From Archangium violaceum (GTDB lineage: Bacteria > Myxococcota > Myxococcia > Myxococcales > Myxococcaceae), in NCBI RefSeq assembly GCF_016887565.1, contig NZ_CP069396.1, positions 13,126,001-13,190,000 on the forward strand: a stretch of 64,000 bases of DNA. Direction: 5' to 3'. Positions 55,785-63,093 of the stretch are shown piece by piece; the stretch's first letter is position 1, and every line of letters starts with the position of its first letter. The notes beneath the pieces were generated by a model, which had not been told where the DNA came from, ran no database searches, and was given only the letters and a program-made list of their open reading frames with translations. The translations under genes were made by a program, and so were the position numbers.

Positions 55785-55921
55785 ACGGGGCTCCAGGCTC
55801 GCCCGGGAGCGCGGGGATCCGGCGTCTCCGGGGTTCGAGCGGCCATCCATTCTAGAGCCCGCGCTGACTCGGAGTGAATCCCCGGGCCCCCCCGGGTGCG
55901 ACCCCGTCATCCGAAGAATCG

Positions 55922-55950
55922 TTGAAAAGCCGACAAGCGCCGGTTACCTT
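55922..55950 (+). promoter_or_regulatory. Sigma-70-type promoter candidate for the 56005 gene
   Basis: TTGAAA at 55922-55927, 17-bp spacer, TACCTT at 55945-55950, ending 55 bp before the ATG. Good -35, moderate -10. Confidence 0.45.
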
Positions 55951-56004
55951 GCGCGCCCCCCTTGTGGAGCGCCTGTCCCAGGCGTCGAGGGGGAAAGACA
56001 GACA

Positions 56005-56760
56005 ATGTTCATGCGAAATCGGATTGCCTCCGCGGTACTGGCTGCTGGCTTGATGGCGGGAGTTGCGTGTGGTCCCTCGGACACGGAGCCCTCGCGGGAC
56101 TCCGCCTCGTCCGGCGCCGAGACCGCCCTGGAGGAGCTCGCTCCCAAGCAGGCCACGGACGTCTTCGCCCAGTCCACGCTGCCCTACACCATCGTCTGGG
56201 ATGACTTCTCCCGGACGGGCTCGGGCTACAACATCTGCTCCTCGTATTTCTACAGGACCTGCAGGGACTGTTACGTCTACAACCAGTCGTCCTATTACCA
56301 GTCCCTTTGCCCCTCTCCCACCGACATCAATCCGGTCGGGTGTCGGGTCTGCAATTACACGTACACCGATCGCGTCCTGCTCCCCGGTGGAGACCTGATC
56401 GACGTCTCCATCGAGCACAACGCCACCGCCCCGGACGGCATCGAGTTCCGTCTGGAGTCCGCCCCCAACGTGAAGTGGTGGAAGCAGGTGGCCCTCACCG
56501 GCGTGGTGGACTACTGGACCGTGTGGAACCAGAACGGTCAGTCCTGGTGCAACTGGCCCGACCCCCAGACCGCCGGCTGCAACACCAACTCGCAGTGGGC
56601 CGACGTCGCGCTCAACCCGGGCTCGCGCTTCGTCTTCTCCAAGACCCAATCCTCCGGCACGCGCGAGGATACCTACGTGCTCCACAACCTCGCCGAGCGC
56701 CTCACCGGTGGTGACCGCGTCACCTTCCGCTGGGTGGAAGACATCACCGACCCCAACTGA
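56005..56760 (+). CDS. Secreted Cys-rich lipoprotein, hypothetical
   Basis: 251 aa from the ATG at 56005 (GGGGGAAAG upstream); the Met two codons later is an alternative. Lipoprotein signal 'AVLAAGLMAGVAC' (Cys near 24). The mature protein has aromatic- and Cys-rich segments ('YNICSSYFYRTCRDCYVYNQ', 'SLCPSPTDINPVGCRVCNYT', 'SWCNWPDPQTAGCN') and a beta-sandwich-like end ('VTFRWVEDITDPN'). No family recognised. Probably surface-exposed. The RADAR operon's 3' end lies 48 bp away, convergent. Confidence 0.62.
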   Translation: MFMRNRIASAVLAAGLMAGVACGPSDTEPSRDSASSGAETALEELAPKQATDVFAQSTLPYTIVWDDFSRTGSGYNICSSYFYRTCRDCYVYNQSSYYQSLCPSPTDINPVGCRVCNYTYTDRVLLPGGDLIDVSIEHNATAPDGIEFRLESAPNVKWWKQVALTGVVDYWTVWNQNGQSWCNWPDPQTAGCNTNSQWADVALNPGSRFVFSKTQSSGTREDTYVLHNLAERLTGGDRVTFRWVEDITDPN

Positions 56761-56808
56761 GCTCCGCTCGTGGCTCGGCCGCACTCCGTGGCTCGACGGG
56801 TCTCGTGA

Positions 56809-59445
56809 CTACAGGACGCTCCTCCAGCGCGCGGCGAGGCGCTGGAGCAGCTGCCCATCCGCACTGGCCGGTAACGTGAACCGCGATCGCCACCCCGCGA
56901 GCCGGACCCGCTCGACCCACGCCAGTGCCTCCTGGGCCGTGTGGTTCTGGAGCAGGGTGAAGTAGAGATAGGCGTATTCGTCGGAGAGCCGGGTGGCGAA
57001 GGTGATGGGGTCGTCCGTGTTGATCGACACGAGCAGGGGCGTGTCCCCGGAGGGCCCCTGTGTCAGCCGCAACGCGGGATGCTCCCCGAGCACGCCCATG
57101 TCCGACGTCAGGAGGTTGCTCGAGGGATTGCTCTCGACCGTGACCTCCATGCGCCCGAGCAACCGGCGCAGCCACCGCTGGGCCTCCGTGAGCATGGCCA
57201 TCTCGGAGTCGTCCAGGCGGACGTCGAGGGGCTGCTCGCCACGCCGGAACCACACCGTCGATGTCAGGTACCTCCGGAGCACCTCGAATGCATCCGAGGG
57301 ATGGCGGCTGTCGGAGCCCGGGGCCACACGCCGGGGATAGCCCATCCGTTCCACGATGGCGGGGGAATGCCGCAGTCTCCTGGCTTCGAGGTACATGTCG
57401 AGGTCGGGCGTGGGGTCGAGATAGACGTCGCGCAGGAGCCGTCGAAGCTCCGCGCGGACCCGTTCCCGGCGGGCGGTTCCTCCATCGAGGTTCCCCCGTT
57501 GGTACCGCTCGAGCTCCCAGAGAAGGTCGTCGATCCGCTCCTCCGCGGGCTGGTGGATCATCCGCGCATGGCGAGCCCAGGCACCGACATCCACGCCCAG
57601 CGCGACGCCATGGCCGATCCGGTCCCCCTGCTGGAGGGCACCGAACTCGACCAGCTCGTGGATGCGGCGCAGCCCCTCGACGAGGCGCCGGAAATCCTCT
57701 CCCACGTGATAGGTGACACGCAGGGGTGGAATCGTCTCTCGCGAGGCGAGCACCCGTGACGCATGGACCGAGGCGCGCCGGGTCTCCGCCAGGATGCCCA
57801 GCGTCGGCCAGGAGGGGACGGACAACTCGGTGCTCGCGAAGTCCAGCCCGCGGATGAACAGGAGCATGCTCGGGAAGCGCTCGAGGGCTCCCGCGAGGGC
57901 CTGCGCGCGGCGCCGTTGTTCCGCGAACCAGTCTCCGAAGCGCACGCCCGTTCCATTCCCCTCGGGGTCGGCGTGGAGCCGCCGCTCCGGGTGCCGTGCG
58001 TTGATGCGCTCCTTCAGGAAGTGGTAGGTGAGGCCAATCTCCGGAGGGCGGAAGTCGGCGCCAGCATCGTGCCGGCGGTGGAAGCGAAGGCTCCCCTCCA
58101 CCAGCTTCTGGACGTCGCCGCAGACCTGGATCCACGTCTCGGGGGGAGTCCGCCGCAACTCCAGCGCACCCAGGCGCAGATCGGCGCTCTCATGCTCCAG
58201 GGCCGCATCCAGCAGCGTGGAGTCCAGGTCCCCGCGCAGCGCCTTGAGTCGACCGAAGAAGCGCTGGAACCAGTCGAGGCCCGCGGTTCCGGACTCCAGG
58301 ACGAGGAAGGCGTAGGCACGGCAACGGACGCGCTGGTACTGCCAGAAGAACCGCTGGAAGTCCGCGTCCGCCAGGCCGGAGCGGATGGCTCGCTGCGCGC
58401 GCGTGGCGAAGAGCGTCTCGGGCAGGAGCTTGCCCGGCACTCCGGGCATCCACGGCGCGATGGGGTCCGCGGCGTAGATCTGCTCGAGGCTCCCGGGGCG
58501 CGGATGGTCGTACCGGCCCACCAGCAGCCGGTAGACGTGACCGAGCTCGGCCAGTCCAGGGCCGCCCGAGCCCTTCAGGAGCATCCGCAGGGCGGCACCA
58601 CACCAGTGCTGGCGCTCGACCTGACCCACCGGATGCCCGTGACGGGAGATGGCGCGCTCGATGGCCTCACGGCAGAAAGCGGCGAAAGACTGTCCCCGGC
58701 CCGCCTCGAGGCGCAGCAGGTAGCCCGCCATGAGGGTGCGAGTGATCGCCGCGGCCAGCAACAGGGAGAAGAAGGTCGTCTGGCCTCCAAAGGGCCATGC
58801 CTCGTCCGGGGCCGGGGGCGTCCGGCCCGGTCGAGGTCCCTCGCGAAGGAACCATCCCATCCACGAGGTCCAGAGCTGGGAGAACGAGAAGGCGGCCTTC
58901 TCGTGAAGGTGCGTCTCGGCGACGGGCTCGTTCAGCACCTGGGCGAGCTGGGGGCTGACGAGACTCACGCGATTGGCCGGTGGCTCCTGCCCACCGAGCG
59001 AGTAGAGGGAGGAGATCATCAGGTCCGGCGGGAGGAGGAGGGAGATCCACCGCCAGAGAGCGATGAGGGCCACGGCGTCCGTGCGTGAGGGATGGGCCGC
59101 TTCGCGCAGGCGCACCGAGGCTCCGGCTGGTTCGAGGTAGAAGGACGCCAGACGGTACAGGTACGCCTCCAGGGAGACGTTCGGACCCCCGGTGCCGTCC
59201 CCCGGGCCCCCCGCGCCGAACCACGCATGGTCCCGGACTCCGTTGAGCACCTCGAGCGAGAGCCCGCGCGCACGAAGCCTCAGGTGCTCCTCCAGCTCGC
59301 GAGCCATGGCGCTCGTCGCCGGGTCGAGCACCCCGGGCGCCACCCGTCCCAGTACGACCGAGCCCCGCTGGAATCCCCGCTGCGACAGGAACGGCCAGGC
59401 CTCGGCTTCCGCGATCAACCGCTCGTAGACGATCTCCCCCGCCAT
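56809..59445 (-). CDS. rdrB: RADAR deaminase RdrB
   Basis: 878 aa, a divergent, very long adenosine-deaminase-like protein as in RADAR anti-phage systems. Zinc/catalytic motifs of the ADA fold are all visible: HLH (179-181, 'ETHLHEKAAF'), 'YHVGEDFRRLVEG' (H580, E583), 'GDRIGHGVALGV' (H612) and 'LLVSINTDDPITF' (D811/D812); 'TVESNPSSNLL' is also ADA-like. In RADAR, RdrB assembles into a large shell with RdrA and deaminates adenosine in RNA and/or adenine nucleotides during infection, blocking phage growth. Preceded by GGGAGGG with 6 nt spacing and only 12 nt behind the rdrA stop. Large insertions between motifs are normal for RdrB. Confidence 0.88.
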   Translation of the reverse strand: MAGEIVYERLIAEAEAWPFLSQRGFQRGSVVLGRVAPGVLDPATSAMARELEEHLRLRARGLSLEVLNGVRDHAWFGAGGPGDGTGGPNVSLEAYLYRLASFYLEPAGASVRLREAAHPSRTDAVALIALWRWISLLLPPDLMISSLYSLGGQEPPANRVSLVSPQLAQVLNEPVAETHLHEKAAFSFSQLWTSWMGWFLREGPRPGRTPPAPDEAWPFGGQTTFFSLLLAAAITRTLMAGYLLRLEAGRGQSFAAFCREAIERAISRHGHPVGQVERQHWCGAALRMLLKGSGGPGLAELGHVYRLLVGRYDHPRPGSLEQIYAADPIAPWMPGVPGKLLPETLFATRAQRAIRSGLADADFQRFFWQYQRVRCRAYAFLVLESGTAGLDWFQRFFGRLKALRGDLDSTLLDAALEHESADLRLGALELRRTPPETWIQVCGDVQKLVEGSLRFHRRHDAGADFRPPEIGLTYHFLKERINARHPERRLHADPEGNGTGVRFGDWFAEQRRRAQALAGALERFPSMLLFIRGLDFASTELSVPSWPTLGILAETRRASVHASRVLASRETIPPLRVTYHVGEDFRRLVEGLRRIHELVEFGALQQGDRIGHGVALGVDVGAWARHARMIHQPAEERIDDLLWELERYQRGNLDGGTARRERVRAELRRLLRDVYLDPTPDLDMYLEARRLRHSPAIVERMGYPRRVAPGSDSRHPSDAFEVLRRYLTSTVWFRRGEQPLDVRLDDSEMAMLTEAQRWLRRLLGRMEVTVESNPSSNLLTSDMGVLGEHPALRLTQGPSGDTPLLVSINTDDPITFATRLSDEYAYLYFTLLQNHTAQEALAWVERVRLAGWRSRFTLPASADGQLLQRLAARWRSVL

Positions 59446-59457
59446 GGCGCCCTCCCG

Positions 59458-62400
59458 TCAGGAGTGAGGCTTCTTCCGCGAGGGTTCGTCACCGTCAGCC
59501 GGGCCACGGGCCTCGATCCTCTTGACCCAGGGATGCTCGGGGAAGGGCTCATCGATGTTCTCGAGGACTGTCTCGAGCAGGTCATGGGGCACGCCGTCCG
59601 CGCGCATGCGCTCGCGACGCATCCGACGAAGCCGGGAGGGATCCATGCCGGCGGAGAGGGCGTACTCGATGAAGACCTGTGCAATGGAGTTCGACAGCGC
59701 GGCTTCCGGCGTCCCCATCAGCGGGAGACTTTCGACCCACCTGGCGAACAACTTGTCGCGACGCCCCACCGGCGCCTTCGACTGCTCCGTGAGGTTTCTC
59801 AGCAGGGGATCGAACTGCATTTTCGTGGCGACACCTTCGATGTAGGGGCTCCCTCCAGACCTCCAACGCGAAGCCGCACAGTTCCTGAGATAGCTGAGCG
59901 CCAATGAATCAGCGACGTAGGGCTTGTGCGTCGCGCTATCCAGCGTGAGCCATCCGCTGAGGTTCTGCACTGTTTCCGCCCAGATGCCGACGAAGTCCTC
60001 GTATTCCTTCAAGGACGGCCAGCTCACGGCGGGCCAGGAATGAAACGGTTGCTTGTAATCTGAAAGCGACTGAGTGAAGACGACAGGCCACAGCAACAGC
60101 TCCGGGTGCTCGGCTGGAAGGTCGGACGCGTCATCCTGGTCCTGGACATAGTCGAAGATGAGCCTGAACAAGGCATCGAGGGGGGCGGGCAGCTCCGGCG
60201 CGCGTCGTACCGGAGCGAATCGCTCGATGTGGAGGGTTCGCTGCGCATCGATCGTGATTTCTCGTGCGTCCCCTTCACGTCCGTTCCAGATGAGGTCGCG
60301 CAAATGCTTTCCGAACTCGCTCGCCGCCTTGCTGATGATGATCTTCGTCTGGTAGAGCGAGAACCACTCCATCACGTCAGGGCGTGCCAGCTTCTCCGCG
60401 AACACTCGCCACAGACCCACGAGGACGACGGGGGTCCGCGCGTTTTCGGAGATTCGCTGATGGCGCTCGACCTCCAGCCGGGCCGCGGAGGCGAGCACCT
60501 TGGGGAGGTTGCCCAGCGCTCTCTGGCGCGACGTGGTGCTGTAGTGTGAGAGCTCGTGCTCATCCCTCATGATGGGCTTGAGTTGGGGCACCTCCAGGCG
60601 GTTGATGCTGTTCCAGAGGTCCGCGACGTCGCCCCGGCTGCTCGTCTGCTCGCTCAGGCCTTTCATGGCCTCGACGAATGGATGGGATGGAATGGTCGCG
60701 TCGATGTCCTCGAGGGCGAACTGGCGGTCTGGAGTGGCGCGATTCGGGGGCACCGGGGGCACCATTCGCGCGAAGCGTCTCGCTTGAATCGCCCTGGCTG
60801 ACCACAAGGGGCCCAGTCGCTTCATCAGCACCTCGAGGAAGCTGCGCGCCTCCTCGAGGGGAAGACCGGATTCGGGAGCCGCGATGAGCACGGCTTCCTC
60901 GAGCGCCCATCGGGCGTTGACCTGTTGTCGAGGCGAGGCGCCCTCCGAAGGTTCCGCCAGCCTGGCGAGCTCTTCCGCGAGCGCGGGCCAGTCCGATACG
61001 CCTTCCCACCAGGCCTCTTTCGGAAGGGTGACACCTCGGCTCCTGGCGATCTGGAGGGCGAGCCACAGGAACTGACGCGCCAGGAGGCTGACATCCCATG
61101 TCCCGTGTGGTTGGGCCAGCAGCTGGCGCCAGTAGCGAGCGAACAACACGTGGTCCACGGGGGCCTTCCACGCTGGAAGCACCCAGGGCACGACCACGGC
61201 GGTGTTCAGCTGGGAGTTCTTCCAGGAAGCCACCACGAATTGCAGTGTTCCCTTGTCGAACGGTGCGGCCAGCTCGTCCAGACGGCTGCCCTGGACGACA
61301 TCGGCCGCCACGTCCGCGGCCAGCAACCAACAGGCCGTCAACGGTCCGTCCAACTCTTGATTGCCGAGCTTCTTTCCAAGCTGAGGGGCGGGGATATTGG
61401 AGACCAGGTACGCACGGAAACGGAGCAGATCCTGGAGCGAGAGGGTGCTCCCACTGCTACCCGCTGGAATCCCCGCCACGGGCTCGAACTCGCTCATCAA
61501 CCGGACCTTCTGCGTGTTGAGCTGGAGTCGTCCATCCATCCGGGAGCTCTTCACCATCTCGGTGAGCTCCCGGTGTTGGGGGGCCCACTCCTTCACGGTC
61601 TGGTCCCAGAGCCACTTGATGATTCGAAGCGACGCGGAAGAGGGGGGGCCCTTTCGTTTGACGTCGTTCTCCTTGCGGAGTCTCGCCGTCAACTCGTCGA
61701 TCTGCCGCAATCGCTCCGGGAGCAGCTCCGCGCTCTGCTCGTTCTCCAGGAGATAGTCACGAAGGGTGGGCGGATTCGCCGGGTATTCGCGGGGAATCTC
61801 CGGAGGCCGGACCTCGACCGTGTACTGCTTGAGGAGCTTGCGGATCTCCCGGATTCGCTTCACCCGCTCCCTGTGCGTCAGCGTGTCCAGCCGGAAGCGC
61901 GCCGAGCTGGGGATGTCCTTCGCGTAGATGTCCTCCGCCAGCCTGCGGGAGTCCTCCTGATCCTTTGGCCCCTTGCCTGCCTGGTTCTGCAGGGATTCCT
62001 GCAACCTCGAGAGGAAGAGCTTGCTGTCTCCCGCCACCAGGAACGCCAGCCGCGGATGCCACAGCTTCCGCAGCAGCTCGAGCAGCTTCACCGAGAGTCG
62101 CGGATTCATGTCCGCGTCGTCGATGGCCAGCAGGAACAGCGGCTTCTTCCGGTACTTTCTCGCGTAGTCTTCGACCAGCGCATCGAGCGCCTCGCGGAAC
62201 CGCTGCGGCAGCTGTCCGCGTTCGAGCTCCTCATCGATGGTCTCGATCACGTAGGCGCTCATGTCCCGCCGCCCCACCCTCCCCTCCAGGCTCTCGTCCC
62301 AGGTGACCAGCAGCTTCATCAGTCGCAGCCACTTCTCTCGAAGCTGACTGAGGGCCGGGCCCTCCCAGGGCAGTGATGGATTCTCCGGCGCGACCGGTGT

Positions 62401-62850
62401 CGGGGGCTCCACCGCCTCGACGACGCGCTTGAGATGCCCCGCGATGTGCAGCGGCAGGTTCGTCTGTGGCGGCAGCGGTTGGAGGTCGATGAGCCCGATC
62501 GGGATGATCCGATCGTCCATCTTCTCGAACTTCTCCGGAGGCTCCTCCCCCAACACCTGCTGCCCGTACGCATGGAGCAGCGTCACCACGAGCGTGGATT
62601 TACCCGTGCCCCGGTCTCCGTCGATCAGCAGCACCCGGTTCGACCGCTTCCCCTCGATGTGCGGCAGGTAGGAATGTTCCCGCGCCGGCACGGGCGCGGA
62701 GGGCCCCCGCTCGTTGGCCATGTCCTGCAGCGCCTCGGCAATCGCCTTGCCCGCGTTCCACTGCGCCCTCGTGAGCCGCTTCAATGGCAATGGCGCCGCT
62801 TCGGGCCGGGGGGCCGGTGCCTCCTGCCTCTTCTTCTTCGACTTGCTCAT
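59458..62850 (-). CDS. rdrA: RADAR ATPase RdrA
   Basis: 1130 aa. A P-loop NTPase of KAP/STAND-like type in its N-terminal third: Walker A 'GDRGTGKSTLVVTLLHAY' (K84), Walker B 'LFLLAIDDADMNP' (D244/D245), sensor-like 'RLAFLVAGDSKLFLSRL'. The remaining 750 residues are mainly helical with no separate recognised domain, as in RdrA proteins, here somewhat longer than the roughly 900 aa I recall for the characterised ones. It forms an oligomeric ring that gates RdrB. First gene of the rdrA-rdrB operon; the Lys-rich start MSKSKKKRQ is kept because no other Met precedes Walker A sensibly. Note the hairpin abutting the ATG. Confidence 0.86.
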   Translation of the reverse strand: MSKSKKKRQEAPAPRPEAAPLPLKRLTRAQWNAGKAIAEALQDMANERGPSAPVPAREHSYLPHIEGKRSNRVLLIDGDRGTGKSTLVVTLLHAYGQQVLGEEPPEKFEKMDDRIIPIGLIDLQPLPPQTNLPLHIAGHLKRVVEAVEPPTPVAPENPSLPWEGPALSQLREKWLRLMKLLVTWDESLEGRVGRRDMSAYVIETIDEELERGQLPQRFREALDALVEDYARKYRKKPLFLLAIDDADMNPRLSVKLLELLRKLWHPRLAFLVAGDSKLFLSRLQESLQNQAGKGPKDQEDSRRLAEDIYAKDIPSSARFRLDTLTHRERVKRIREIRKLLKQYTVEVRPPEIPREYPANPPTLRDYLLENEQSAELLPERLRQIDELTARLRKENDVKRKGPPSSASLRIIKWLWDQTVKEWAPQHRELTEMVKSSRMDGRLQLNTQKVRLMSEFEPVAGIPAGSSGSTLSLQDLLRFRAYLVSNIPAPQLGKKLGNQELDGPLTACWLLAADVAADVVQGSRLDELAAPFDKGTLQFVVASWKNSQLNTAVVVPWVLPAWKAPVDHVLFARYWRQLLAQPHGTWDVSLLARQFLWLALQIARSRGVTLPKEAWWEGVSDWPALAEELARLAEPSEGASPRQQVNARWALEEAVLIAAPESGLPLEEARSFLEVLMKRLGPLWSARAIQARRFARMVPPVPPNRATPDRQFALEDIDATIPSHPFVEAMKGLSEQTSSRGDVADLWNSINRLEVPQLKPIMRDEHELSHYSTTSRQRALGNLPKVLASAARLEVERHQRISENARTPVVLVGLWRVFAEKLARPDVMEWFSLYQTKIIISKAASEFGKHLRDLIWNGREGDAREITIDAQRTLHIERFAPVRRAPELPAPLDALFRLIFDYVQDQDDASDLPAEHPELLLWPVVFTQSLSDYKQPFHSWPAVSWPSLKEYEDFVGIWAETVQNLSGWLTLDSATHKPYVADSLALSYLRNCAASRWRSGGSPYIEGVATKMQFDPLLRNLTEQSKAPVGRRDKLFARWVESLPLMGTPEAALSNSIAQVFIEYALSAGMDPSRLRRMRRERMRADGVPHDLLETVLENIDEPFPEHPWVKRIEARGPADGDEPSRKKPHS

Positions 62851-62871
62851 GGGCCTCGGTCTCAGAGGCCC
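62851..62871 (-). promoter_or_regulatory. Hairpin abutting the rdrA start codon
   Basis: On the minus strand GGGCCTC-(7 nt)-GAGGCCC ends exactly one base before the rdrA ATG. There is no Shine-Dalgarno sequence outside the stem, so the structure could limit RdrA synthesis. Confidence 0.45.
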
Positions 62872-63093
62872 TCCCCGTTAGTCGAATGCCCCTGGCCTGC
62901 AAAGGGTGTCGCGCCGCGTCAGCCTCGAAGCTCACTCCCGGGTGACTCCCGGGTGACAGTCAGCACCCGCCCTCCTCTCGCGCGGTGTTCACCTTCTCCT
63001 GTTGCCTGCCCGGGCTGCCGCCTTGGGAGTGGCGGGCGTGCGTCACATTCGCGCCCCCGCTTCTCCACCCGGGAGAACCCATAGGAGGCTTCC

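What the first reader, a model, noticed from the sequence alone, without database searches (positions are those of the whole stretch)
56809..62850. Two-gene RADAR anti-phage system in a myxobacterium
Seen: a long P-loop ATPase (Walker A GDRGTGKST, Walker B DDAD) followed after 12 nt by an 878-aa adenosine-deaminase-like protein with complete HxH, HxGE, GHG and NTDDP motifs. Known: RdrA/RdrB of RADAR have exactly this pairing and restrict phages by adenosine deamination. Inference: this is a functional RADAR operon. RdrA looks longer than the characterised ones, and I see no extra membrane accessory gene (RdrD/Csx27-type) next to it.
Basis: partly seen in the sequence, partly recalled or inferred. 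Interest (0 to 1): 0.8.

Follow-up and report, generated by a model that had tools for sequence, protein, structure and literature searches.

The report
Divergent RADAR pair, doubled RdrA lobe
A myxobacterium carries a distant version of RADAR, a two-protein bacterial antiviral machine thought to spoil the cell's ATP during phage attack, and its ATPase has a second copy of the part suspected to sense the phage.

Summary
In detail: an 1130-aa AAA+ protein and, 12 nt on, an 878-aa deaminase, both on the minus strand. It is RADAR, but a divergent lineage. Both proteins miss NCBI's curated cut-offs by far (RdrB 99.8 of 800 bits, RdrA 25.7 of 600). Those cut-offs are narrow: a very close homologue of the solved E. 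coli RdrB scores only 114.6. The predicted RdrB matches solved RdrB over 695 residues (Z 33.5; best ordinary adenosine deaminase 23.4 over 312). The 15 best Foldseek chains for the ATPase are all RdrA. The five zinc/catalytic residues are kept in 71 of 71 RdrBs aligned.

The reason appears new: its C-terminal lobe (about 334-735) is tandemly duplicated (737-1121). In its 17-row clade nine rows clearly have two lobes, six have one and two are unclear. The pair sits in a 7.1-kb segment missing from a congeneric genome. This lineage was found in 30 of 145 genomes of the order.

Phage defence and ATP deamination are inferred from characterised systems, not tested. Verdict: new variant of a known kind.

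The parts
59458..62850 (-). rdrA-like gene, 1130-aa AAA+ ATPase
   Evidence: ORF; NCBIfam RdrA 25.7 bits, E 3.7e-6, cut-off 600; AF2 model pLDDT 82.6, pTM 0.65; the 15 best Foldseek chains are all RdrA (E 4.8e-8 to 6.1e-6), next is ClpX at 0.017
61852..62850 (-). RdrA residues 1-333: AAA+ core with Walker A, Walker B, sensor 1
   Evidence: alignment to the Pantoea (EcRdrA-type) RdrA: G83/K84/S85, D244/D245, D275 correspond to EcRdrA G81/K82/T83, D221/D222, D253
62593..62619 (-). Walker A, residues 78-86 (GDRGTGKST)
   Evidence: sequence; G83 and K84 in 22 of 22 RdrAs aligned
62110..62121 (-). Walker B, residues 244-247 (DDAD)
   Evidence: D244 in 22 of 22, D245 in 21 of 22 RdrAs aligned
62152..62457 (-). 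RdrA residues 132-233: four predicted helices before Walker B, at the place of the RdrA 'crown' that docks RdrB
   Evidence: AF2 helices 132-147, 169-184, 197-211, 214-233; crown described in PMC9994260 section 9
60646..61851 (-). RdrA residues 334-735: C-terminal lobe, copy 1
   Evidence: a profile built from the second copies matches it at E 1.5e-20 (334-735)
59488..60642 (-). RdrA residues 737-1121: C-terminal lobe, copy 2 (tandem duplicate)
   Evidence: HHalign to copy 1: probability 99.7, E 5.2e-26, 225 columns; controls at most 5.9; BLASTP of the two halves E 0.003; predicted helix/strand pattern repeats at offset 389
56809..59445 (-). rdrB-like gene, 878-aa adenosine-deaminase-like protein
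   Evidence: NCBIfam RdrB 99.8 bits, E 1.5e-28, cut-off 800; AF2 pLDDT 91.1, pTM 0.93; VIA-align Z 33.5 to 8fnv over 695 residues
58903..58911 (-). RdrB H179/H181, zinc ligands
   Evidence: align with EcRdrB H152/H154; 71 of 71 rows
57697..57708 (-). RdrB H580...E583, zinc ligand and catalytic glutamate
   Evidence: align with EcRdrB H498/E501; 71 of 71 rows
57610..57612 (-). RdrB H612, zinc ligand
   Evidence: aligns with EcRdrB H530; 71 of 71 rows
57013..57015 (-). RdrB D811, conserved aspartate of the NTDDP motif
   Evidence: aligns with D748 of the EcRdrB-type protein; 71 of 71 rows
55891..63035 (.). segment absent from a congeneric genome (7145 nt here, 76 nt there), holding the pair and one orphan lipoprotein-like gene
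   Evidence: blastn of window plus right flank against G045 contig C16 (flanks located)
56005..56760 (+). orphan lipoprotein-like gene (251 aa) inside the same segment, convergent with rdrB; no evidence that it belongs to the system
   Evidence: no Pfam match; tblastn finds it only in this genome's own loci among the loci held at that call

Best explanation
A RADAR anti-phage system of a divergent lineage. Inferred working: the AAA+ protein forms a ring whose helical crown docks on a multimeric RdrB shell. On phage infection the ring, perhaps through its C-terminal lobes, switches on RdrB, which deaminates ATP and dATP to ITP and dITP and so blocks phage replication. In this branch RdrA carries two tandem copies of the C-terminal lobe, which should give the ring an extra layer or a second sensing surface. 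Shown here by sequence and prediction: gene pairing, fold, catalytic residues, the duplicated lobe, purifying selection, presence/absence at the site. Inferred from characterised RADARs: assembly, substrate, phage trigger.
For: RdrB and RdrA are the best-scoring NCBIfam families. At E 1e-3, 26 of 26 members of the order-level alignments match the RdrB model and 20 of 26 the RdrA model; PADLOC's RdrB models match 26 of 26 and its two RdrA models 13 and 10 of 26 at E 0.01. The RdrB model matches solved RdrB over 695 residues, far beyond the ADA core (Z 33.5 against 23.4 over 312). The seven best VIA rows and the 15 best Foldseek rows for RdrA are all RdrA. H179/H181/H580/E583/H612 correspond to EcRdrB H152/H154/H498/E501/H530, in 71 of 71 (EcRdrB numbers from PMC9994260). 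The A-B order is kept in 37 of 37 order-level loci, the window's own included, two cut by contig ends. Calibration: window RdrB is 19.8% identical to the EcRdrB-type protein, while that protein is 17.4 and 18.3% identical to the two rows over the NCBI cut-off. Lobe duplication.
Against: NCBI's curated RdrA/RdrB cut-offs are not reached. RdrA is weaker than the EcRdrA-type control (25.7 against 127.8 bits), and its closest relative L052 has no NCBIfam hit at E 0.01. EcRdrB's EEE motif at the 3-fold interface is not conserved here, nor in the two rows over the cut-off. Sensor 1 aspartate is present here but in only 14 of 22 RdrAs aligned, and the EcRdrA crown residues are not strictly kept. The lobe profiles match none of the six yardstick RdrAs L145-L150 at E 1e-3, so equating the lobes with the known RdrA C-terminal domain rests on a poor structural overlay (rmsd 8.0-8.6 in the rows that reach past residue 600). 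No clear defence neighbours: among 77 neighbour proteins PADLOC families at E 1e-20 each match one or two (no control run).
Confidence: 0.87

Rival explanations
1. A RADAR-derived pair that has been put to a housekeeping or developmental use in myxobacteria (nucleotide control), rather than phage defence.
For: In the genus holding Corallococcus, 14 of 16 genomes carry a pair beside the same downstream gene, which looks unusually fixed for a defence system.
Against: In the window's own genus only 2 of 6 genomes have a match, and the window's site is empty in G045. The upstream flank in Corallococcus is shared only within small groups of genomes. RdrA has 1.2 to 2.9 times the dN/dS of RdrB in the seven pairs compared.
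Confidence: 0.08
2. An ordinary adenosine or AMP deaminase next to an unrelated AAA+ or KAP-type ATPase.
For: Weak matches to ordinary ADA models in the C-terminal part (28.1 bits; Pfam A_deaminase 26.0 against cut-off 27).
Against: The RdrB model scores 99.8 bits; the fold match to RdrB covers more than twice as many residues as any ordinary ADA row shown up to rank 5; the pair is kept in 37 of 37 order-level loci.
Confidence: 0.03
3. The extra length of RdrA is an unrelated fused domain rather than a duplicated lobe.
For: Single-sequence BLASTP of the two halves is weak (E 0.003, 92 columns).
Against: HHalign 99.7%, E 5.2e-26; reversed, 20 column-shuffled, AAA+ and RdrB controls stay at or under 0.4%, and a segment 126-430, which overlaps the start of lobe 1, gives 5.9%. 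The predicted secondary structure repeats best at offset 389.
Confidence: 0.03

Closest known systems
E. coli RADAR (EcRdrA/EcRdrB; PDB 8fnt, 8fnv, 8fnw, 8hr7)
   Same: Gene order, RdrB fold over 695 residues, five catalytic/zinc residues, Walker A/B and sensor 1 of RdrA, predicted four-helix insertion at the crown position.
   Different: 19.8% identity in RdrB to the EcRdrB-type protein; EEE interface motif absent; RdrA 1130 aa against 947 for the EcRdrA chains in the PDB, with a second C-terminal lobe.
Aliivibrio/E. coli-Salmonella-type RADAR recognised by NCBIfam NF041743/NF041744
   Same: Two-gene rdrA-rdrB layout and active site.
   Different: Window RdrB is about 19% identical to both and scores a small fraction of the curated cut-offs. 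That Citrobacter RADAR belongs to this type is recalled, not tested.
Streptococcus suis RADAR RdrA (8fnu)
   Same: AAA+ and part of the C-terminal region align (Z 17.6, 457 residues, rmsd 8.6).
   Different: S. suis RdrA stacks as a 14-mer through flipped-out C-terminal helices (PMC9994260 section 9); whether the second lobe here mimics that is unknown.
Cad1 (CARF-fused adenosine deaminase of type III CRISPR)
   Same: Shares the ADA core (Z 19.1-21.1 in the rows shown); said to convert ATP to ITP (title in a search listing).
   Different: Cad1 rows align over 283-337 residues against 695 for RdrB. CARF domain and CRISPR arrays were not looked for in the window.

Membership tests
RADAR | rdrA and rdrB in tandem | tested here: met
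   12 nt apart, same strand. 37 of 37 order-level loci (window included) have the upstream gene, two cut by contig ends. 48 of 56 named loci have an upstream ORF over 500 aa, 44 of these 48 with a Walker A pattern; the other eight matches lie at or near contig ends or are fragments
RADAR | RdrB: histidine tetrad and catalytic glutamate | tested here: met
   H179, H181, H580, H612, E583 align with EcRdrB H152, H154, H498, H530, E501
RADAR | RdrB: insertions 1-3 on the ADA core that build the shell | tested here: met
   695 residues of the model align to 8fnv_A, model range 14-859, against 312 for the best ordinary ADA; insertions were not compared one by one, and whether a dodecamer forms is not testable
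RADAR | RdrB 3-fold interface glutamates (EcRdrB E595-E597) | tested here: not met
   not conserved here, nor in the two rows over the NCBI cut-off, so it looks like a feature of the EcRdrB type rather than of the family
RADAR | RdrA: AAA+ with Walker A, Walker B, sensor 1 | tested here: met
   G83/K84/S85, D244/D245, D275; the sensor 1 aspartate is in 14 of 22 RdrAs aligned
RADAR | RdrA: sensor 2 arginine (EcRdrA R377) | tested here: inconclusive
   the column holds L381 here and V in the Pantoea protein itself, so the numbering or alignment slips there; R382 next to it is invariant in the 26- and 42-row alignments
RADAR | RdrA: helical crown insertion and overall fold | tested here: met
   four predicted helices at 132-233; seven best VIA rows and 15 best Foldseek rows are RdrA. 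Crown residues K150, E151, R162 are not strictly conserved
RADAR | NCBIfam curated cut-offs NF041743 (600) and NF041744 (800) | tested here: not met
   25.7 and 99.8 bits. The EcRADAR-type control (Pantoea L148, 1675 bits to PDB 8fnw RdrB over all 799 residues) also misses them: 127.8 and 114.6 bits, so this is a limit of the models rather than of the family
RADAR | ATP/dATP to ITP/dITP conversion and phage protection | not testable with these tools
   needs biochemistry and plaque assays
Ordinary adenosine deaminase | compact ADA (solved ones listed are about 310-370 aa), ADA models as best match | tested here: not met
   878 aa; ADA models score lower than RdrB; the best ordinary ADA covers 312 residues of the fold

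The most novel reading that the evidence does not exclude
A dual-sensor RADAR: duplication of the RdrA C-terminal lobe creates a three-layered ATPase ring (AAA+, lobe 1, lobe 2) in which the second lobe either recognises a different phage trigger or replaces the head-to-tail stacking seen in S. suis RdrA, and this layout has been kept or lost repeatedly across myxobacterial RADARs.
Probability: 0.25. Interest if true: 0.7.

Novelty: new variant of a known kind. Interest (0 to 1): 0.5.

Why it matters
RADAR is reported as rare (270 of about 38,000 genomes, PMC9994260, passage seen). This lineage occurs in 30 of 145 genomes of the window's order (two weak hits dropped). The best RdrB and RdrA E-values among the 26 members scanned (5.6e-53 and 1.3e-13) correspond to scores far under the NCBI cut-offs, so annotation by those models passes them by; PADLOC's RdrB models do match them. 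RADAR may therefore be undercounted in soil bacteria, though the two surveys used different genomes and methods. What RdrA senses is an open question; natural RdrAs with one or two copies of the suspected sensor lobe, in otherwise similar systems, offer a direct way to test that lobe's role.

Tried and rejected
Rejected: ordinary ADA plus unrelated ATPase; unrelated fused domain in RdrA.

Led nowhere: single-protein scan of genome contigs (22 stretches matched a pattern, none a relative); phage records (no match); viral contigs (32 stretches matched a pattern, none a relative). Accessory genes directly downstream of rdrB: 65 rows were examined by a simple ORF rule and 35 listed. Read by eye, no gene recurs widely; Corallococcus rows share a short ORF antisense to the conserved downstream gene, and L103 and L118 share a similar ORF. 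PADLOC scan of neighbours: 171 neighbour ORFs listed, 115 kept by size limits, 77 of these 115 chosen by me for the alignment. 33 families passed E 1e-20 (25 shown), each in one or two of 77 proteins. Most of those shown are PD-T4-6, mad and C3a189 models, which I recall as kinase-type; AbiLi, RtcR-CARF and PDC-M38 also appear. No control set was run, so no claim of a defence island is made.

The lobe tree puts all ten second lobes (L128's included) on one side of a branch, but with weak support (51/75), so one ancestral duplication is neither shown nor rejected. L097 (1074 aa) and L128 (1108 aa) may be two-lobed but are too divergent to count. A first numbering of EcRdrA residues on the Pantoea protein was wrong by 25 residues and was redone. 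One script failed on file format. One HHalign control, segment 126-430, overlaps the start of lobe 1 and is not a clean control.

Papers: PMC9994260: abstract; sections 9, 10, 11 and 13 read in full; passages of others. All other papers were seen in search listings only. That a duplicated RdrA lobe is not in print rests only and on the parts of PMC9994260 named here; supplements, most preprints and most subscription journals were not searched. Accessory genes RdrC/RdrD/Csx27 are recalled, not looked up.
Full report
What is there. On the minus strand lie a 1130-aa AAA+ ORF (59458-62850) and, 12 nt downstream, an 878-aa ORF (56809-59445).

Family profiles. NCBIfam gives RdrA 25.7 bits (cut-off 600) and RdrB 99.8 bits (cut-off 800); the best ordinary ADA model gives 28.1. 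PADLOC gives RdrB 74.3 bits and RdrA 13.5 bits, the latter over 27 of 900 positions. Pfam A_deaminase is just below its cut-off (26.0 against 27). In 26-row alignments of pairs from the order (26 of the 37 loci, window included), 26 of 26 match NCBIfam's RdrB and 20 of 26 its RdrA at E 1e-3; the best E-values are 5.6e-53 and 1.3e-13. For scale, an RdrB E-value of 6.3e-53 is 180.5 bits. PADLOC's two RdrB models each match 26 of 26, and its two RdrA models match 13 and 10 of 26, at E 0.01.

Are the cut-offs fair? Pantoea plasmid locus L148 encodes a very close homologue of the solved E. coli RdrB (1675 bits to PDB 8fnw over all 799 residues). It scores only 114.6 bits on the RdrB model, and its RdrA scores 127.8. 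Of the yardsticks only the Aliivibrio and Salmonella rows pass for RdrB (969.6 and 900.6 bits); the Aliivibrio RdrA scores 780.6 (the Salmonella RdrA was not scanned). The Salmonella rdrB is 100% identical to an annotated E. coli rdrB. Window RdrB is 19.8% identical to the L148 protein and 19.1 and 18.9% to those two, while L148 is 18.3 and 17.4% identical to them. The window protein is thus no farther from each known type than they are from each other. RdrA is weaker than the control, and its nearest relative L052 has no NCBIfam hit at E 0.01.

Structure. The RdrB model (pLDDT 91.1) matches 8fnv_A with Z 33.5, rmsd 3.7 over 695 residues; the best ordinary ADA has Z 23.4 over 312. Foldseek agrees (6.3e-25 against 2.9e-5). 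The RdrA model (pLDDT 82.6, pTM 0.65) has RdrA as its seven best VIA rows (Z 22.1 to 17.6, rmsd 4.6-8.6), then BrxC at 12.7; none of these rows reaches past model residue 675, so the second lobe is untested by this search. RdrA also fills its 15 best Foldseek rows. The five zinc/catalytic residues and D811 are kept in 71 of 71 distinct RdrBs, the window's own and six plasmid yardsticks included. Walker A, Walker B and sensor 1 are present, and four predicted helices sit at the crown position. The Ec-type 3-fold interface glutamates and the exact crown residues are not kept.

Relatives. The order search found matches in 32 of 145 genomes; I dropped two weak ones (G106, G116, inside 2707-aa frames), leaving 30. 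The same search with RdrA, which diverges faster, found 14 of 145. A profile search of the phylum found 31 of 195 at E 1e-20, one of them (G188) a short partial. All 37 fetched order-level loci, the window's own included, have the upstream ATPase gene; two are cut by contig ends. A named-genome scan gave 56 loci in Myxococcota, Pseudomonadota, Planctomycetota and other phyla, some in the same genomes; 48 of 56 have an upstream ORF over 500 aa. The genome of the window is in the genus of Archangium lansinium (G044 contig 1 has the length of NZ_JAPNKA010000001.1). In a quick tree of 71 rows, 65 including the window form one branch apart from the six plasmid yardsticks; long branches make deep placement unsure.

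The duplicated lobe. Within the window's 17-row clade, six RdrAs are 784-872 aa and eleven are 1074-1224 aa. The extra part is a second copy of the C-terminal lobe. HHalign between the two copies gives 99.7%, E 5.2e-26 over 225 columns. Reversed, AAA+ 1-303, RdrB and 20 column-shuffled controls give at most 0.4%; segment 126-430, which overlaps the start of lobe 1, gives 5.9%. A profile of first and single lobes, built without second copies, finds the second copy in the window protein at E 5.3e-17 and two copies in nine rows in all; it matches 37 of 67 RdrAs but none of the yardsticks L145-L150. BLASTP of the two halves gives E 0.003. The predicted helix/strand string matches itself best at offset 389 (0.68; mean over offsets 300-449 0.44, sd 0.08). 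Six rows have one lobe; L128 is a weak second case and L097 is unclear. The Cell 2023 paper suggests that the C-terminal domain may sense the phage (section 9); the dual-sensor idea built on it is inference.

Gene turnover. In congeneric G045 the two flanking genes lie about 120 nt apart; by blastn the window has 7145 nt (55891-63035) where G045 has 76 nt. No integrase was noted among the ORFs of the segment; tRNAs were not searched for. The direction (gain or loss) is not settled. Both genes are under purifying selection, RdrA evolving faster (dN/dS 0.29-0.54 against 0.15-0.39 over the seven pairs compared).

Conclusion. RADAR of an under-recognised lineage with a doubled RdrA lobe. Function is inferred from the characterised systems.

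Noticed in passing
L065-L067, L072, L074, L078-L081, L083-L087: In the genus holding Corallococcus, 14 of 16 genomes carry a RADAR-like pair beside the same downstream gene (about 390 aa, opposite strand), while the upstream flank is shared only within small groups (G067's different pair was not in that comparison, G069 has none): an unusually fixed position for a defence system.
   Followed up: partly
G044, G070, G081, G083, G108: These genomes hold two or three RADAR-like RdrB matches each.
   Followed up: no
L097:6528-9692: A PglZ-domain gene starts about 107 nt downstream of rdrB in a Myxococcales MAG, a BREX-like neighbour.
   Followed up: no
L139:10147-15300: A 1718-aa protein with LCAT, CHAT and PLD-like domains lies about 139 nt downstream of rdrB in a Planctomyces MAG.
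   Followed up: no
L115, 3' end of rdrB: A small gene (180 aa, hydrophobic by eye, no Pfam match for the stretch scanned) overlaps the end of rdrB by about 28 nt, a possible accessory membrane gene.
   Followed up: no
L150:7687-8394: The RADAR-like pair of Aureibacter, annotated only as hypothetical proteins, is followed by an overlapping SLATT-domain gene.
   Followed up: no
window 56005-56760: Orphan 251-aa lipoprotein-like gene carried in the same segment as the pair; no Pfam family and no relative among the loci held.
   Followed up: partly
G106:C168:40169-40477, G116:C16:18152-18451: Weak deaminase-like matches inside 2707-aa frames; not counted as RdrB, nature unknown.
   Followed up: no
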